Positions 54,903 through 62,520 of a stretch of DNA of 64,000 nucleotides are shown one piece after another. The first letter of the stretch is position 1; each line of letters begins with the position of its first letter. The notes under the pieces were generated by a model that saw nothing but the letters and a program-made list of their open reading frames with translations, was not told where the DNA came from and did no database searches. The stretch is from Elusimicrobiaceae bacterium (lineage in GTDB: Bacteria > Elusimicrobiota > Elusimicrobia > Elusimicrobiales > Elusimicrobiaceae). A program made the position numbers and the translations under genes. Location of the stretch: positions 1 to 64,000 of the forward strand of contig JAGCWX010000016.1 of the NCBI GenBank assembly GCA_017961585.1. The letters run 5' to 3'.

Positions 54903-56849
54903 CTACGGTTCTATTTCAAATAAATCACCTTGTTTGGCTTTTGGTTTTTCCGTTTGAGCCACCGGGGTGGTTTCCTGCGCCAACTCGTCCGCCGCCTGCT
55001 GTGCGGTTTCGGTTTGTTGGGCTTGGGCCGGTTTTAAACCTAAAATTTCATCAATTTCTTTGGCCTCTACTACTTCTTTTTCCAATAGTACAGACACCAA
55101 CTTATCAAACGCAGGCCGGTGGGCTGTAATAATCTCTTTGGCACGTGCGTAAGAAGTTTTGATCAAATTCATAATTTCTTCGTCAATCACCTTGGCTAAT
55201 TGCTGCGAATAGGTGGTATGGCGGGAAATATCGCGTCCCAAGAACACTTCACCTTCGTCGGCACTGGGCAAGGAAATGGGGCCTAACTTTTCGCTCATCC
55301 CCAACTCCATGACCATTTTACGGGCATAAGCCATGGCCTTGTTCAAATCGTCACTAGCGCCGGAAGTAATTTCGCCGAACACAATTTCTTCGGCTCCACG
55401 TCCCGCCAGCAGAATACACAACCGGTCCTTAAATTCGGACTTGCTGACCAAAAATTTATCTTCCACCGGCAACTGTAAAGTATATCCCAACGCTTGTCCC
55501 CGCGGAATGATAGACACTTTATGTACCGGGTCCGAATGGTCGGTAAGGCGCGCTACCAGCGTATGCCCTACTTCGTGCGCGGCAATTACCTGCAATTCGT
55601 GCTTGGAAATAATGCGGCTCTTCTTTTGCGGGCCGGCAATCACACGTTCAATGGCTTCATCCATATCGGAGGGTTCCACCGCTTCTTTATCGGCACGAGC
55701 CGCCAAAATGGCAGCTTCGTTGACAACGTTGGCTAAATCGGCCCCTACAAAACCGGGGGTTCCCTTGGCCACGGTTTTCAAGTCTACATCTTCGGCCAAT
55801 TTTACTTTTTTGGCGTGTACCTTTAAAATCTCTTCGCGGCCCTTCAAGTCCGGTGCGGGCACGGAAATATGCCGATCAAAGCGACCGGGACGAATGAGCG
55901 CCGGGTCCAACACGTCCGGGCGGTTGGTGGACGCCATCAAAATAATCCCTTGTTTGCTTTCAAACCCGTCCAGTTCAATGAGCAATTGGTTAAGCGTTTG
56001 TTCGCGCTCGTCGTGTCCGCCACCGATACCGGCAAAACGTCGGCGGCCTACGGCGTCCAATTCGTCAATAAAGATAATCGCGGGGGAATTCTTTTTGGCT
56101 TGGTCAAACAAGTCCCGCACGCGGGCGGCACCCACCCCCACAAACATTTCCACAAATTCAGAGGCGGAAGCAGAGAAGAACGCCACCCCGGCTTCGCCCG
56201 CTACGGCTTTCGCCAACAAGGTTTTACCGGTGCCCGGGGCTCCATACAAAAGCACCCCTTTGGGTAATTTTCCCCCTAATTTTTGGAATTTTTTGGGATT
56301 TTTCAAAAATTTAATGATATCTTCCAGCTCTTCTTTGGCTTCATCACAACCGGCCACATCTTTGAAGGTAACGGTTTGTTGGCTGGGATCTTGCATTTTG
56401 GCTTTACTGCGCGCAAAGCTCATCGCGCTTTTGCCGTCGCTACGTTGCGGGCGCAAAAAGATAAACCACCACAGCCCTACCAAAAGTACAATCCACAAGA
56501 TATTAAATAACATGCTGCCAATCCAGCTGTTATCTTTTTGGGCTTTGTATTTGATATTGGCGGCGGATAATTCCTTGACCAAATCCGGGTCGGCCATGCG
56601 AACGGTTTTAAAAGGGACGAATTGGTCCTTATCGTTTTTGTACAGGCCGGAAATCACTTCCGGAGCAACAGTTAAATCCGACACTTGGGCCGCGGCAACT
56701 TTCTGTTTGAATTCTGAATAGTCCAACGTAGCTTGTTTAGCTCCCGGGCGGTTAAATAGCACAATCATCAATACAAAAACGGCAATCCACCCAAGGATCT
56801 GCCCCACCGAAATCATTTTACGGTTATGGGAATGTTTATTGTTTTTCAT
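54903..56849 (-). CDS. ftsH: ATP-dependent zinc metalloprotease FtsH
   Basis: 648 residues. Two transmembrane helices (about 13-31 and 111-130) flank a small periplasmic domain; AAA module with GAPGTGKT (about 204-211), FIDELDAVG and RPGRFDRHI; protease domain with HEVGH (about 426-430). It degrades membrane proteins and regulators. The tail (about 600-648) is Gln/Ala/Thr-rich. Start overlaps the hpt stop by 1 nt; hpt-ftsH order is also known from Firmicutes. Confidence 0.98.
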
Positions 56850-57376
56850 TATTTCTTAAAGACCCCTATGTAAGGTAAGTTACGGTATAGTTCGTTATAA
56901 TCCAAACCATAGCCAATGACGAAATCGTCCCCCACTTCAAAACCAATGTATTTGGGGTGAATATCCACTTTGCGGTTGCACGGTTTATCCAGCAGGCAGC
57001 AAATCTCCAAGCTGGCCGCTCCGCGCGATTGTAAGTTGGACATCAAATACTCCAGCGTCAAGCCGGTATCCACAATATCCTCTACCACTACCACGTGGCG
57101 GCCTTTGATACTTTCGCGCAGGTCCAACATGGTGCGCACTTGTCCCATGCTAGACGTGCCGGAATAGGAAGACAGGCACATAAAATCCATGTTGCAATCC
57201 ACGCTGATTTGCTTCATCAAATCGGAATAGAACAAAATACAGCCGCGTAAAATCCCCACAAACAGGGGCATTTTCCCTCGGTAATCAGCGGAAATTTGGC
57301 GGCCCAGTTCGGCTACGCGCTGGGCTAATTGCTCTTGCGAAAATAAAATACGGTCCAAAACGGGTGTTTGAGCCAT
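56849..57376 (-). CDS. hpt: Hypoxanthine phosphoribosyltransferase
   Basis: 175 residues. PRPP motif VVVVEDIVDTGLTL (about 95-108), FVGILRGCILF (residues 38-48) and CLSSYSGTSSMG flexible loop, all typical of Hpt. It salvages hypoxanthine or guanine to nucleotides. First gene of the leftward operon down to gph. AGGGAGGG precedes the ATG. Confidence 0.95.
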   Translation of the reverse strand: MAQTPVLDRILFSQEQLAQRVAELGRQISADYRGKMPLFVGILRGCILFYSDLMKQISVDCNMDFMCLSSYSGTSSMGQVRTMLDLRESIKGRHVVVVEDIVDTGLTLEYLMSNLQSRGAASLEICCLLDKPCNRKVDIHPKYIGFEVGDDFVIGYGLDYNELYRNLPYIGVFKK

Positions 57377-57524
57377 AAACCCTCCCTAAGAGAATATATA
57401 TAAAAGGATACCTTTTTTTAGAGGAAAAGGGAAGGCCTTGCGCTCTATAGCCGCTCCAAGGGCCTAGGCCCTAAATCTTGTACGCGTAGGTCCAAAGGCC
57501 CTGGTAGCTTACCGGTATGTTTGC

Positions 57525-57535
57525 AATAATATAAT
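57525..57535 (+). promoter_or_regulatory. -10 region, predicted leaderless promoter
   Basis: TTGCAATAATATAAT: TATAAT at 57530-57535 is 6 nt before the ATG at 57542; the overlapping AATAAT is 8 nt before ATG 57539. No Shine-Dalgarno. Upstream (57459-57472) lies a perfect 14-bp palindrome AGGGCCTAGGCCCT. Confidence 0.5.
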
Positions 57536-57541
57536 TGTATG

Positions 57542-59065
57542 ATGAAAAAACCAATCCTTATGTTTGCCGTTTTAAGCTGTTTCTTAAGCAACATCCCCGC
57601 CGCGGCGTTAGCGGCCGATAAGCTGCAACAAGCTGTTACCCAGCGGGTAGAAGGCCTGGCCTCAACCCAAACCCCCGGCCCGATTACCAGCTGGTATGGG
57701 CTGCCTGTAATTACCTGGCAACAAGCCGATCAATATATTGCGCAAGGGAAGAAAGATCAAGCCCAAATTCAACAAGATCTTAGCGAACTGGCCGGCGTGA
57801 AGGTACAATTAACCAAAGCCCAATGGATGCAACGTAAAGTAGAAATGCAACCCCAGCAAGGCACGCTAAATTATGCCGAAGTGACCAAAGGCAAAAAATA
57901 TATTTTTATTTCTGAATTGCACGAAGTGGCCCCTGTCCAAGCGGAAGTACAACAAATCCTTAAAGCAGTGCGCGCTAAAAACCCGGGTAAAAAAATCTTA
58001 CTGGCCACGGAATTTGCCAGTCTGCAACACCCGCAGTCTAACCCTTTGCAACTCAATAACCGCAGCTCTTTGCACGACTATGGGTACGATTGGATTCCCG
58101 ATACAGCCGACAAACTTAAAATAGACGTATTGGCTTTGGATGATGAAATTGTGCAATTTCTCGCCGATGGAACTACGCTAGTTAAAGTTGGCGAACAATA
58201 CTTGCGTACCAACGTAGAAACGGACCCTCGCTCCGTGCAAATTTTGCAACGCTTTCCGGATGATTTCAAGGGGCCTTTCCCCTCTAAACCCGGGATTGAA
58301 AATACTTGTGCGTTTGAAGTGTTACACAAAAAAGCACCGGCCGCTTTCAAAGCCGTTACCGCTCAACAAATAAAAGAAGCCACTGCTGCTATCGCGCCAA
58401 ACCCCGGGGATGAAAAATGGTATGCCGTATATATGAACTGTGTCAAAACCAGCAGGGCCACCCAAGTCAGCCAGGCGGATCTGAAACGTTTGCTCAAAGC
58501 ACAATACGTGGGTCGGGAAATTTTAGGCAGCTATTGGGGTATCATCCAACGCAACAAACAATGGGCCAACCGCATTAATCAAGTAGCCCCCAATTATGAT
58601 ATCGTAATCGTTTGGGCGGGAGGAGCCCATGTGGACAATCCGGACTCTTGGCCCAGCACCGATGTACTTTTAAATCAAGCGGAAAACTCCGTTTACTTTT
58701 CCGTCAATTTAACAACCGCCGGTTTAGAGGCACACCGCAGCCAAATACAAAGATACATCAGCTTTTATGAAAATGTGAACATGCGCAATTCAAGTGCTAC
58801 GTTGGACCAAATCATAGCCAAACAGCGCAACACGCATCAAAGCATGTTCCCGTCTATCAACCCGGATCGGCCTTTCTTTGTAAATCAAACAATCTCGGTC
58901 GGGTTGCAAATTCCAGCAGAACTGGAGGATTCTTCTCAAACTGCGCTCTTGCAGCACCTTGTAACTTACGGGAAAAGTCTGCAAGAAAAACTAAACACTA
59001 CCGTGTGCACTAAGCAGCAATTCCCGGCGGCCGAACCGTCCACTTATTATGTTTTTGTACAGTAG
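57542..59065 (+). CDS. Exported TIKI/ChaN-like protein, copy 1
   Basis: 507 residues with a signal peptide (cleavage after ALA, about residue 25). Motifs of the TIKI/TraB/ChaN superfamily: KYIFISELHEVAP (about 120-132, normally GExH, here SELH), ILLATEF, LALDDEIVQFL, and YDIVIVWAGGAHVDNP (GxxH type) near 355-370. Related proteins are metal-dependent proteases or haem-binding; function here unknown. A downstream paralogue shares TSWYGLPVITW and the same motifs. ATG 57539 is equally possible. Confidence 0.72.
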   Translation: MKKPILMFAVLSCFLSNIPAAALAADKLQQAVTQRVEGLASTQTPGPITSWYGLPVITWQQADQYIAQGKKDQAQIQQDLSELAGVKVQLTKAQWMQRKVEMQPQQGTLNYAEVTKGKKYIFISELHEVAPVQAEVQQILKAVRAKNPGKKILLATEFASLQHPQSNPLQLNNRSSLHDYGYDWIPDTADKLKIDVLALDDEIVQFLADGTTLVKVGEQYLRTNVETDPRSVQILQRFPDDFKGPFPSKPGIENTCAFEVLHKKAPAAFKAVTAQQIKEATAAIAPNPGDEKWYAVYMNCVKTSRATQVSQADLKRLLKAQYVGREILGSYWGIIQRNKQWANRINQVAPNYDIVIVWAGGAHVDNPDSWPSTDVLLNQAENSVYFSVNLTTAGLEAHRSQIQRYISFYENVNMRNSSATLDQIIAKQRNTHQSMFPSINPDRPFFVNQTISVGLQIPAELEDSSQTALLQHLVTYGKSLQEKLNTTVCTKQQFPAAEPSTYYVFVQ

Positions 59066-59094
59066 GATGAGCTTAATTTACGAGGAAAAACACC

Positions 59095-60618
59095 ATGAAA
59101 AAATCGTTATTTGTTCTAACCCTAGTTTCTTGCTTGTTAACTTACCTACCGGCCGGTGCCGTAGGGCAAAAAACGTTGCAAAACGCGCTGGAACGGCGGG
59201 TAGCCGTTGCGCGTAAAACAGCAACCCCTGCCTCCCCGAAACACCCCACGTTTCAAACAGGTGCCCCCACCTCTTGGTATGGGCTGCCTGTAATTACCTG
59301 GGAAGATTTGGAGCAAAGCATCCACAAATTTACTAACCAGATGGAACAAGTTAATCTGCTCAACAATTTATTAGTAGAATTGGAATACGACGAAATGGCA
59401 ACCGTTATAAATCAGCAACTTCAACAGGGCTCCCCGGACTACAAAACCGCCATTGCAAATAAAAAATATATCTACATCGGGGAAACGCACGACTTTCCTG
59501 CCGTACAAGAAGAAGTTTTTAAATTGTTACGTATCATTCGCCAGGAAAATCCAAATAAAAAAATACTATTGGCTACCGAGTTTTTAGCCCCGAAACACCC
59601 AATGTTTGCACCGTTATTCCTTCAAGGGAAAGCAACTTTTGCGGAAGAAGGATACCCGGGATTGCTGGCGCAAGCAAATAATTTGCAAATGGACCTTTTG
59701 GCCCTGGATGATGAAATTATCCAAATGTTGCCGGACGGGAGCGACTTGATAAAGATAGGGCAAAAATACCTGCACACCGATATACGCTTTGACTTCCGCG
59801 CGCAACAGCTTTTAAACCCTTTTTTACAAGAAATAAAAGAGGCCGCGCAAGAAACTGATTTGGCTCATTCAGACAGTTGTCTATTTGAAACCCTATACCA
59901 AGCCAAAACCCCGGCCGATTTCCAAGCAGCCCCGCGTCGTCAACTTTCCCTGGAAGAAACCGCAATCATTACCCCCGGGAGTGAACTCTTTTGGCAAGTG
60001 TATTTTCAATGCTTATATTCGGACGAGAAGAAACCTCAACTTACCCAAGAGCAAGTTCTGCGTCTATACAAAGCTCAAAGACTCATGGAACTAATAAAGG
60101 CAAGCGAGTGGGGCGCAGTGGAACGAAACAAACAATGGCATAAGCACCTTGAAGAAGTACAAGCCAATTACGACATTGTCATTGTGTGGGTCGGTTCCGG
60201 TCATTTAGAAGGGAGAGCATTCTCTCATCCTTCCCTTACCCGGCTTTTAAACCACCCGGAAAATTCCGTAGAAATACACATTCAACCCGCCGAAATGGCT
60301 AAAATGGATTCGGACGACGGTTATGCACAACGGGGTGAATGGTTGGAAGACCAAGGATTAGCGCTCCAAGACGAATTTACGCATATAGATAAAGAGCCGC
60401 TTGTGGACTTTTCTAAACCGTTTTTTATAAAACTCACCGCCCCTGTTAAAGAAAAGAAGGAACCTCAATCCGCAAAATCTATAGAAGATTTTACCTGGGA
60501 ACAACCCCGGAAAGATTTTATGGAACAAGTGCTCATAGATCGGATGGAGCAGTATATTGAGGCCCCGGCAAACAGCCAAGAACCCATCAGAACCCTTTAC
60601 ATAGTTAATGTGAAATAG
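59095..60618 (+). CDS. Exported TIKI/ChaN-like protein, copy 2
   Basis: 507 residues, signal peptide (cleavage near AGA, about residue 22). Same layout as the preceding gene: TSWYGLPVITWEDLEQ, KYIYIGETHDFPAVQEEV with a canonical GETH, KILLATEFLAPKHP, LLALDDEIIQML, and YDIVIVWVGSGHLEG. GAGGA precedes the ATG and the gap is 29 nt, so the pair is probably co-transcribed. The C-terminal 130 residues diverge. One Cys pair (CLFETLY...CLYSDE) is shared in position with copy 1, perhaps a disulphide. Confidence 0.75.
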   Translation: MKKSLFVLTLVSCLLTYLPAGAVGQKTLQNALERRVAVARKTATPASPKHPTFQTGAPTSWYGLPVITWEDLEQSIHKFTNQMEQVNLLNNLLVELEYDEMATVINQQLQQGSPDYKTAIANKKYIYIGETHDFPAVQEEVFKLLRIIRQENPNKKILLATEFLAPKHPMFAPLFLQGKATFAEEGYPGLLAQANNLQMDLLALDDEIIQMLPDGSDLIKIGQKYLHTDIRFDFRAQQLLNPFLQEIKEAAQETDLAHSDSCLFETLYQAKTPADFQAAPRRQLSLEETAIITPGSELFWQVYFQCLYSDEKKPQLTQEQVLRLYKAQRLMELIKASEWGAVERNKQWHKHLEEVQANYDIVIVWVGSGHLEGRAFSHPSLTRLLNHPENSVEIHIQPAEMAKMDSDDGYAQRGEWLEDQGLALQDEFTHIDKEPLVDFSKPFFIKLTAPVKEKKEPQSAKSIEDFTWEQPRKDFMEQVLIDRMEQYIEAPANSQEPIRTLYIVNVK

Positions 60619-60651: not shown

Positions 60652-62520
60652 TTATCGTCCAAACAACTTGCCGATTTCTTCCATGCTAAGTTGTGCTAAC
60701 ACAGGGCGGCCATGCGGGCAATGCATACCGTCTTTGCAGTTTTTCATATTTTCCAGCAAGGTTTCGGCCTCGGCCGCAGTTAAGGCATCGTGCGCTTTTA
60801 CAGCCCGTTTACAAGCCAACATCGCAATCATTTTACGTTTTAAAGTGTCCGTGGATTTGGCCGGATCCCCCACCACATCGGCTAGCGACACAATAAACGC
60901 TTTGATATCTGCTTCTTTAAAACGCACTACGTTGGGCATTGTTTTTACCAACACCGTACGGGCCGAAAAGGGTTCTATTTCAAACCCGGCACTTTTAAGC
61001 CAGGCCGTCCACGAGAGCAAACTCTCCACCTGAGAAGGCGGCAAATCTACATGCAAAGGGAACAGCAATTTTTGCGTTTGCAAGGATTGTTTTTCAAAGG
61101 CATCTAAATACTGTTCAAAAAGTACCCGTTCCTGGGCTGCGTGCTGATCAATAACCACCAACCCTTGCGGGTTTTCAAATAATAAATAGCTACGTTGTAA
61201 CTGCCCCAAATAATGATATGGGCCTTGGTACCACTGCGGCCCGTCCGAGGTTTTTTCCGTTTGCGGGGCGGCCTTGGCGGGAGCTTCCTCCCGGGCAGAT
61301 TGTTCCGCAGGACGGTGGCTGTACTCAACCGGTTCTTCGGTTTCGCGCAAATCTTTAACAGGTTTCACAAAAAAACTGTCTAGCGACGCCGTAGAAATCG
61401 GTTTGGGGGATTGGGCCTGGGCGGCAAAATCTTCCATGGGCTTGTTGAACAGTTTGGTGGCCGCCGGTTGAGCGGGCTTGGGCAGATCCAGGGTCGGCTT
61501 CGTCAACTGCACTTCCACCGGGCGTGCGTTGCCAAAAATAGTTTGCCCGGCATTTTTCATTACGGTATAAAAAACCGCGTGTTCATCTTCAAAACGCACA
61601 TCGCGTTTTTGTGGGTGGATATTGACGTCAAACGCAGCCGGTGGCAACGTCATATACATTAAAAACGCAGGGTGCGTATTTTGCCCGCGTGCATTTTGAT
61701 AGGCCTTATAGACAGCTTGCGTAATGGTTTTGGAATCAATCGGCCGGCGGTTGACAAAAATATACTGCAAATCTCGCACGTGCACCAATTTATCTGCCGG
61801 AGTAATAAAAAGCTGCAAGCCCATTTCATCAAAGGACTTATACACCAAACTGTCTGCCACTTCTTCCCCTAAAATTTGGCGGGCACGGGCCAACACGCCC
61901 TCTTTAAAATCACCTTCCTGGGCCGGCAGATGGTACACTTCCCGCCCGTTTACGGTAACATGATACCCCACGTTTAAATTAGCCAGGGCACTTTCCTCTA
62001 TTACTTTTAAAAGGCAGGCGCGTTCGTGCGAATCACTTTTCAAAAATTTAAGACGGGCAGGTACATTGTAAAACAAATCTCGTATTTCCACGGTAGTGCC
62101 AGCAATCGCAGGGGCCGGGCTTTGCGCAATTACTTTACCACCGTGCACTTCCAAACGTGCCCCATTCCCACCGGGCTGGCAGCTGGTGATAGTCATTTTG
62201 GAAACTGCCGCCACGGAGTACAATGCCTCCCCCCGGAAGCCAAACGTATGTAACGAAGACAAATCTTCAAACGCACTAATTTTGCTGGTGGCGTGACGCA
62301 GCACGCTTAACTTCAAATCCTCCGCGTCCATCCCGCACCCATTGTCATTGATGCGGATGAGTGCCCGCCCGGATCCTTCTATCGTAATATGCACCGCACT
62401 AGCCCCGGCGTCTACGGCATTTTCCAAAAGCTCTTTAAGCACACCGGCCGGGCGTTCAATTACTTCTCCCGCGGCAATTTGGCCGGCGGTTTTTTCGTCT
62501 AGTACGTGGATATTACTCAT
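60652..62520 (-). CDS. mutL: DNA mismatch repair protein MutL (endonuclease type)
   Basis: 622 residues. GHKL ATPase domain: [38 protein letters not shown]-terminal nuclease with [12 protein letters not shown] (about 450-461), [10 protein letters not shown] and CPHGRP (about 603-608), the metal-binding motifs of MutL that nicks DNA itself. This implies repair without MutH. The middle is a Pro/Ala/Glu linker (about 335-425). ATG lies 8 nt inside mutS. Confidence 0.97.

What the first reader, a model, noticed from the sequence alone, without database searches (positions are those of the whole stretch)
57542..60618. Tandem exported TIKI/ChaN-like proteins
Two 507-residue secreted paralogues keep the GExH-type and GxxH-type motifs of a superfamily of metal-dependent proteases and haem-binding proteins, with a shared TSWYGLPVITW leader motif. 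Copy 1 has SELH instead of GETH. They may be a new gut-linked subgroup, acting on host or bacterial peptides or on haem.
Basis: partly seen in the sequence, partly recalled or inferred. Interest (0 to 1): 0.6.

Follow-up and report, generated by a model that had tools for sequence, protein, structure and literature searches.

The report
Expanded family of exported TIKI-like hydrolases
Two neighbouring genes in a gut bacterium encode exported proteins that look like working members of a known enzyme superfamily (TIKI / erythromycin-esterase / ChaN-like), and they belong to an unnamed family that has multiplied into long gene arrays in this one genus, some of them inside a conserved phage-derived gene cluster.

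Summary
In detail: two tandem 507-aa exported paralogues (36% identical) between hpt and mutL. Both copies keep the 2His/2Glu residues and the Arg of active TIKI-type enzymes; 'SELH' loses only the glycine. No Pfam, NCBIfam or PHROG model matches over a cut-off. The pair belongs to a family expanded in one genus: 48 of 66 genus genomes match, against 3 of 24 in sister genera; 181 of 187 full-length members keep E/D-H-E-R-H although within-genome paralogues are about 33% identical. Best reading: a radiating family of exported hydrolases, substrate unknown; haem binding neither shown nor excluded. Unexpectedly, in 18 of 53 resolvable genomes 1-10 members lie between the terminase and portal genes of an epsilon15-like head-tail module, present in 61 of 66 genus genomes and tracking ftsH (Spearman 0.89), so resembling a gene-transfer agent. 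The window pair itself is not in that module.

The parts
57542..59065 (+). Copy 1 (P0001), 507-aa exported TIKI/EreA-ChaN-like protein; alternative in-frame start at 57539
   Evidence: AF2 model and VIA-align
57686..57718 (+). Copy 1 TSWYGLPVITW segment (residues 49-59), just after the signal peptide
   Evidence: coordinates computed
57911..57922 (+). Copy 1 SELH (E125, H127): first Glu/His of the 2His/2Glu site
58010..58012 (+). Copy 1 E157 (TEF): second Glu
58550..58552 (+). Copy 1 R337 (RNKQW): counterpart of the conserved basic residue
58619..58630 (+). Copy 1 GGAH (H363): second His
59066..59094 (+). 29-nt gap between the copies, with a Shine-Dalgarno-like GAGG before copy 2; suggests one transcript
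   Evidence: sequence
59095..60618 (+). Copy 2 (P0002), 507-aa exported TIKI/EreA-ChaN-like protein
   Evidence: AF2 model; folds
59269..59301 (+). Copy 2 TSWYGLPVITW segment (residues 59-69)
59479..59490 (+). Copy 2 GETH (E130, H132)
59578..59580 (+). Copy 2 E162 (TEF)
60124..60126 (+). Copy 2 R344 (RNKQW)
60193..60204 (+). Copy 2 GSGH (G367, H370)
56849..57376 (-). hpt-like gene, conserved left neighbour of the family locus (name from general knowledge of the sequence)
60652..62520 (-). mutL-like gene, conserved right neighbour (name from general knowledge of the sequence)

Best explanation
The two genes encode exported hydrolases with the EreA/ChaN-like (TIKI) fold. They are members of an unnamed family that has expanded by tandem duplication in one genus of gut Elusimicrobia. 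Each most likely folds outside the cytoplasm around a parallel beta-sheet. At the strand ends, E130-x-H132, E162 and H370 (copy 2 numbering) would activate water, with R344 holding the substrate, to cut an ester or peptide bond, as proposed for Ere esterases and the RRSP endopeptidase. The variable N-terminal part, the insertion between E162 and R344, and the C-terminal part would set the specificity, so the array widens the range of molecules cut outside the cell (peptides, antimicrobials or other esters). Shown here: pairing, export-like signals, expansion, residue conservation, predicted fold. Inferred: catalysis, the bond cut, and the biological role.
For: Fold: copy 2 model (7-row alignment, pTM 0.71, pLDDT mostly 80-96 in the core strands and helices). 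The top 12 VIA-align rows are all superfamily: 2qgm Z 14.2 (rmsd 3.6, 196 aligned), 2rad 13.6, EreC 6xcq/6xcs 13.4/13.3, ChaN 2g5g 13.3 (2.8, 167 aligned), 3b55 13.2, HopBA1 10.8, RRSP 9.3-9.7, PMT 8.3; the first other row is 7.7. Sites: RRSP needs E3900, H3902, E3930 and H4030, plus Arg-4001, described as the counterpart of a basic residue conserved in all TIKI proteases (PMC6254334, passages). In 187 full-length family members, 174 have EHERH and 7 DHERH at these five columns. The H-to-E spacing is 30 in 174 of those 181, against 28 in RRSP and Bcr135. These are among the most conserved columns of the 203-row alignment, while within-genome paralogues have a median core identity of 33%. Pfam: PF04187 is matched by 12 of 31 members at E up to 0.1, best 3.3e-6. 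Export: 179 of 187 against 18 of 93. Expansion: 48 of 66 genus genomes.
Against: No activity, substrate or metal was tested. Both models rest on 6-7 sequences, and the copy 1 model is weak (pTM 0.66; best Z 8.6). Foldseek alone gives no match at E 0.001 or better (best 4.3e-3). Four of 187 members have lost site residues, so some copies need not be enzymes. PMT shows that this fold can lack the 2His/2Glu site, and ChaN, one of the best structural matches, binds haem.
Confidence: 0.66

Rival explanations
1. ChaN-like haem-binding or haem-handling proteins: the pair binds haem at the cell surface or in the periplasm and does not hydrolyse anything.
For: The ChaN structure is among the best fold matches of both models (Z 13.3 and 8.6), and PF04187 (Cofac_haem_bdg) is the Pfam family that most members touch (12 of 31).
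Against: The most conserved columns are the 2His/2Glu/Arg set of active hydrolases. EreC and BcR135/136 match as well as ChaN does. The sequence match of copy 2 to PF04187 covers only the GExH-to-E segment (residues 119-166), and both copies are under its cut-off. The haem-ligand residues of ChaN were not examined.
Confidence: 0.12
2. Secreted effectors aimed at eukaryotic cells (gut protists or the animal host), like RRSP or HopBA1, each paralogue cutting a different target protein.
For: Fold matches to HopBA1 and RRSP; strong divergence between paralogues with a fixed active site; a gut habitat suggested by the record titles of the nearest loci.
Against: The matches to Ere esterases are better. 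The proteins carry Sec-type signals only, and no delivery domain or injection apparatus was looked for. No eukaryotic target is known.
Confidence: 0.08
3. Accessory genes of a phage-derived, gene-transfer-agent-like element: the family serves particle release, uptake or competition, and the hpt-mutL pair are chromosomal relatives.
For: In 18 of 53 genus genomes where terminase and portal genes are both in hand, 1-10 family genes (83 in all) lie between them: 56 in 10 genomes and 27 in 8 genomes, all 27 on the module's strand. The module's portal gene is in 61 of 66 genus genomes.
Against: In 35 of the same 53 genomes nothing of the family lies there, including the window's own genome. Family genes also sit at hpt-mutL and near rplA/obgE. 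No family member was found in isolated phages (two queries) or viral contigs (two queries).
Confidence: 0.1
4. Non-enzymatic surface proteins (binding, decoy or adhesion) that merely keep an old fold.
For: 4 of 187 members lost site residues, for example L090:3151-4788, in which all but the first Glu of the five are changed.
Against: 181 of 187 keep all five residues although the rest of the sequence has diverged widely.
Confidence: 0.04

Closest known systems
Erythromycin esterase (Ere) family: EreC, and BcR135/BcR136 of Bacillus cereus
   Same: Best fold matches (Z 13.2-14.2); His-Glu pair with about the same spacing (30 here, 28 in Bcr135)
   Different: 12-17% identity in the structural alignments; exported here; not matched by NCBIfam and no erythromycin-esterase match in Pfam; no resistance role known
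ChaN (Campylobacter jejuni haem-binding protein; Pfam PF04187)
   Same: Fold (Z 13.3, rmsd 2.8); weak sequence match over the GExH-to-E segment
   Different: 507 aa against 255, with extra N-terminal, inserted and C-terminal parts; under the Pfam cut-off; haem binding untested
RRSP of Vibrio vulnificus (metal-independent TIKI-family Ras/Rap1 endopeptidase)
   Same: 2His/2Glu plus a conserved Arg in the same order; fold Z 9.3-9.7
   Different: Part of a MARTX toxin with a membrane-targeting lobe; the window proteins are stand-alone Sec-type exports
TraB/PrgY/gumN and animal Tiki proteases (Pfam PF01963)
   Same: Weak match of copy 2 over the Arg-to-GxxH segment (residues 342-374, E 0.0018)
   Different: Under cut-off; no PF01963 match in the window's genome at E 0.001
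FpGTA of Faecalibacterium (podovirus-like GTA-like operon, PMC12946183, passages)
   Same: For the phage-derived module only: about 10-12 kb, podovirus-like, near-ubiquitous in a gut genus
   Different: Different phylum; that paper has 0 occurrences of 'Elusimicro'; no packaging data here

Membership tests
EreA/ChaN-like (TIKI) superfamily | Parallel beta-sheet core shared with Ere, ChaN and TIKI structures | tested here: met
   Copy 2: 12 top VIA-align rows, Z 8.3-14.2, first other row 7.7. Copy 1: top 10 rows of the same set, Z 5.7-8.6, next 5.5. Predicted models, not structures.
EreA/ChaN-like (TIKI) superfamily, catalytic type | 2His/2Glu motif | tested here: met
   E130/H132/E162/H370 in copy 2, E125/H127/E157/H363 in copy 1; 181 of 187 family members
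EreA/ChaN-like (TIKI) superfamily, catalytic type | Conserved basic residue near the active site | tested here: met
   R344 in 195 of 199 rows with a residue there; role from PMC6254334. Spatial nearness in the model was not measured.
Pfam PF04187 (ChaN) | Score over the gathering cut-off 27.7 bits | tested here: not met
   Copy 2 18.8 bits, copy 1 no match. Matches over the cut-off occur in 21 of 66 genus genomes, not in the window's own.
Pfam PF01963 (TraB/PrgY/gumN) | Score over the gathering cut-off 26.8 bits | tested here: not met
   Copy 2 18.6 bits, copy 1 no match
ChaN haem-binding proteins | Binds haem | not testable with these tools
   none
Tiki metalloproteases | Metal-dependent peptide cleavage | not testable with these tools
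   none
Gene transfer agent (for the phage-derived module, not the window pair) | Vertically kept phage structural cluster in most members of a lineage | tested here: met
   Portal in 61 of 66 genus genomes; portal against FtsH bit scores, Spearman 0.89 over 50 genomes with near-full-length rows. Based on one gene of the module.
Gene transfer agent (for the phage-derived module, not the window pair) | No genes for its own replication or integration | tested here: inconclusive
   Conserved components with a PHROG function are terminase, portal, protease/scaffold, capsid and tail only; flanks look chromosomal; not searched systematically
Gene transfer agent (for the phage-derived module, not the window pair) | Particles that package host DNA without preference | not testable with these tools
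   none

The most novel reading that the evidence does not exclude
Gut Elusimicrobia of this genus carry a near-universal, vertically inherited, epsilon15-like (podovirus-type) gene-transfer-agent-like cluster, and in one third of resolvable genomes it has taken up arrays of exported TIKI-type hydrolases between the packaging and portal genes. The family is thus a diversified enzyme arsenal that is, in part, produced together with phage-derived particles, for example to act on neighbouring or recipient cells.
Probability: 0.2. Interest if true: 0.82.

Novelty: new variant of a known kind. Interest (0 to 1): 0.57.

Why it matters
A single genome of about 1.4 Mb devotes at least 19 genes (G017) to one exported family with a fixed active site and a widely diverged remainder. 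That is the pattern expected of an enzyme family adapting to many substrates, in a superfamily that includes antibiotic esterases, Wnt-inactivating proteases and Ras-cutting effectors. Finding the substrates would say what these little-known gut bacteria do outside their cells. The link with a genus-wide phage-derived module gives a direct test of whether such elements carry public-goods or competition enzymes.

Tried and rejected
P0002 alone found no relative in genome contigs; a profile of five close members found 3 loci. NCBIfam gave nothing, and a profile search of PDB sequences gave only an unrelated weak hit. GDSL-lipase (PF13472) hits, in copy 1 (E 0.0034) and in 4 of 31 members (best 0.0016), are weak and were rejected because the fold and sites are TIKI-type. 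The BFVD fold search gave no significant match. The idea that the pair itself is prophage cargo was rejected: it lies between hpt and mutL, and the module of this genome is on contig C5 without family genes between terminase and portal. Promoter and terminator scans are little better than shuffles. Paper searches by terms listed nothing that, by title or abstract start, joins this enzyme family or a gene transfer agent with Elusimicrobia; apart from three papers read in passages (PMC6254334, PMC8939145, PMC12946183), listings only were seen. The pdb_via lists contain no TraB/Tiki chain; this is not evidence against kinship.

Caveats on counts. One search scored at most 20 candidates per genome and at most 5, so match numbers are lower bounds, and one gene can give several matches. 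The stretches for the 203 sequences were chosen because they hold matches, so they are not a random sample. In the tree the locus labels were set by hand; at least L012 was labelled hpt-mutL wrongly (its contig shows other neighbours), and L016 and L022 were not checked. In one search the lines 'no family between' for eight loci arise because those loci were not scanned for the family; they were fetched as family matches. In one search two members with a gap at one column (L013:1492-3054, L071:5900-7177) show GExH by eye but are not counted among the 181. L040 and L011 are the same genomic place; L041, L090 and L012 likewise.
Full report
What is there. Two complete genes stand head to tail on the + strand, 57542-59065 and 59095-60618. 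Their 507-aa products are 36% identical, E 4e-85. The gap between them is 29 nt and holds a GAGG before copy 2, so one transcript is likely. The neighbours point the other way: hpt and ftsH on the left, mutL and mutS on the right (names given from general knowledge of the sequences; one search shows the ORFs).

Family membership by sequence. No curated model recognises the pair. Pfam gives copy 2 two partial matches below cut-off, PF04187 (ChaN) over residues 119-166 and PF01963 (TraB) over 342-374, and gives copy 1 only a weak GDSL hit. NCBIfam and PHROGs give nothing. The two partial matches cover the two halves of the TIKI-type site. Across 31 family members PF04187 is touched by 12, best E 3.3e-6; over 66 genus genomes, 21 have a match over its cut-off, not including the window's genome.

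Fold. The AlphaFold2 model of copy 2, made from 7 sequences, has pTM 0.71, with the core strands and helices mostly at pLDDT 80-96. VIA-align places twelve EreA/ChaN-like or TIKI chains on top: 2qgm Z 14.2, BcR135 2rad 13.6 and 3b55 13.2, EreC 13.4 and 13.3, ChaN 13.3, HopBA1 10.8, RRSP 9.3 to 9.7, PMT 8.3. The next, unrelated, row is 7.7. The copy 1 model is weaker (pTM 0.66), but its ten top rows are from the same set, Z 5.7 to 8.6, with the next row at 5.5. Foldseek alone gives only E 4.3e-3 at best.

Active site. In RRSP the residues E3900, H3902, E3930 and H4030 are all needed for cleavage in vitro. Arg-4001, the counterpart of a basic residue conserved in all TIKI proteases, is needed too (PMC6254334, passages read). 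The corresponding residues here are E130, H132, E162, H370 and R344 in copy 2, and E125, H127, E157, H363 and R337 in copy 1. The SELH of copy 1 loses only the glycine of GExH. Of 187 full-length family members found in the stretches I fetched, 174 have EHERH and 7 DHERH. Two have an alignment gap there, and four have lost residues. These columns are among the most conserved in the 203-row alignment (H132 194 of 198, E162 194 of 198, R344 195 of 199, H370 194 of 199), although paralogues in one genome share a median of only 33% in the core (655 pairs). The H-to-E spacing is 30 in 174 of 181; it is 28 in RRSP and Bcr135. The distance from E162 to R344 varies from 59 to 195 residues, so a variable lobe is inserted there. 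I read this as constraint on catalysis with freedom elsewhere; activity itself is not shown.

Export. A simple Sec-signal rule fires on 179 of 187 members and on 18 of 93 other long ORFs of the same loci. Both window copies begin with MKK, a hydrophobic stretch and small residues. No proper signal-peptide program was available.

How large the family is. The window's genome (1.49 Mb, 98% complete) has six members: this pair, one on C5, one on C27 and a tandem pair on C15. A family profile matches 51 of 90 genomes of the taxonomic family at E 1e-5: 48 of 66 in the window's genus, 2 of 3 and 1 of 18 in two sister genera, and none of the other 3 genomes. In the phylum it matches 69 of 340 genomes and 6 of 100 genera at E 1e-3, the distant ones only weakly. 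G017 has at least 19 genes and G063 at least 15. The nearest named records are MAGs titled Elusimicrobium sp. RUG14410 and Elusimicrobiaceae bacterium Tb.RUG.245; that 'RUG' stands for rumen genomes is recalled.

Three conserved settings. First, hpt-mutL: a family gene lies within 600 bp of hpt in 25 genus genomes, and 14 of these also have it near mutL in the stretch held (other genomes were not all examined). In a FastTree tree the window pair falls in a 39-row set with support 100 that is mostly from this locus (with the label caveat given under Tried and rejected). Second, between rplA-side genes and obgE in G064 and G052, with the rplA-side genes also flanking the array of G046 (names from general knowledge). 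Third, and unexpected, inside a phage-derived module.

The phage-derived module. In the window's genome it spans about C5:198760-210649: terminase small and large subunits, head-tail adaptor (portal), protease/scaffold-like, major head protein, two tail proteins and a tail-fibre-like protein by PHROGs. The portal of G013 has 39-42% identity to Salmonella phage epsilon15 and the other best phage records. The portal is found in 61 of 66 genus genomes, mostly once, and in only 2 of the other 83 genomes of the order, at about 30% identity. Its similarity to the window's genome tracks that of FtsH over the 50 genomes with near-full-length rows for both (Spearman 0.89; rows share ancestry, so the P value is not meaningful). 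Flanking chromosomal genes recur between genomes. Viral-contig relatives (14 loci) carry no family gene, and only 0-3 small ORFs lie between terminase and portal in the 7 displayed.

Family arrays in the module. Over the 61 genomes with a portal, terminase and portal are both in hand in 53. In 18 of these, 1 to 10 family genes lie between them (10 genomes and 56 genes; 8 genomes and 27 genes). In the other 35 the gap holds none (6, 29; the 29 gaps measured are 314-1162 bp). Of the 8 unresolved, 3 (G046, G047, G049) show family genes upstream of the portal on short contigs. All 27 genes are on the module's strand. No family member was found in isolated phages or viral contigs with two queries each, so the direction is probably host genes into the module. 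A podovirus-like GTA-like element, FpGTA, was reported in Faecalibacterium in 2026 as the first of that morphology (PMC12946183, passages), and that paper does not mention Elusimicrobia. I therefore call the module GTA-like, not a GTA.

Most likely mechanism. Exported hydrolases cutting ester or peptide bonds with a water activated by the His/Glu site, diversified by duplication. Confidence is about two in three for hydrolysis and low for any one substrate. Haem binding, eukaryote-directed effectors, a particle-linked role and non-enzymatic roles are kept as rivals with lower weight.

Verdict. The important additions are that both copies have intact sites, that the pair is a small piece of a large genus-specific radiation, and that sister arrays occupy a conserved slot in a phage-derived module.

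Noticed in passing
G000:C5:198760-210649 (L093, L094); portal of the same module in 61 of 66 genus genomes: A vertically kept epsilon15-like terminase-portal-capsid-tail cluster, about 12 kb, near-universal in the genus: a candidate gene-transfer-agent-like element in gut Elusimicrobia.
   Followed up: partly
L053-L061, L067, L072, L083 and others; for example L056:4114-17569: Arrays of up to 10-11 family genes; in 18 of 53 resolvable genomes family genes lie between terminase and portal genes of that module.
   Followed up: partly
L090:3151-4788 (same gene as L041:6360-7940): A full-length paralogue in G018 that has lost the first His, second Glu, Arg and second His of the site: a possible pseudoenzyme beside an intact tandem partner.
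   Followed up: no
L093:6911-7411, L094:17542-17997 and other ORFs labelled c7: Many small type IV pilin-like ORFs (MNKGFTLIELLVVVLIIG...) scattered near the module, 28 ORFs in 13 of 18 genomes in that cluster.
   Followed up: no
window 57377-57541: The region between hpt and copy 1 holds a GGGCCTAGGCCC palindrome and a TATAAT just before the first ATG, without a clear ribosome-binding site; possibly a leaderless transcript.
   Followed up: no
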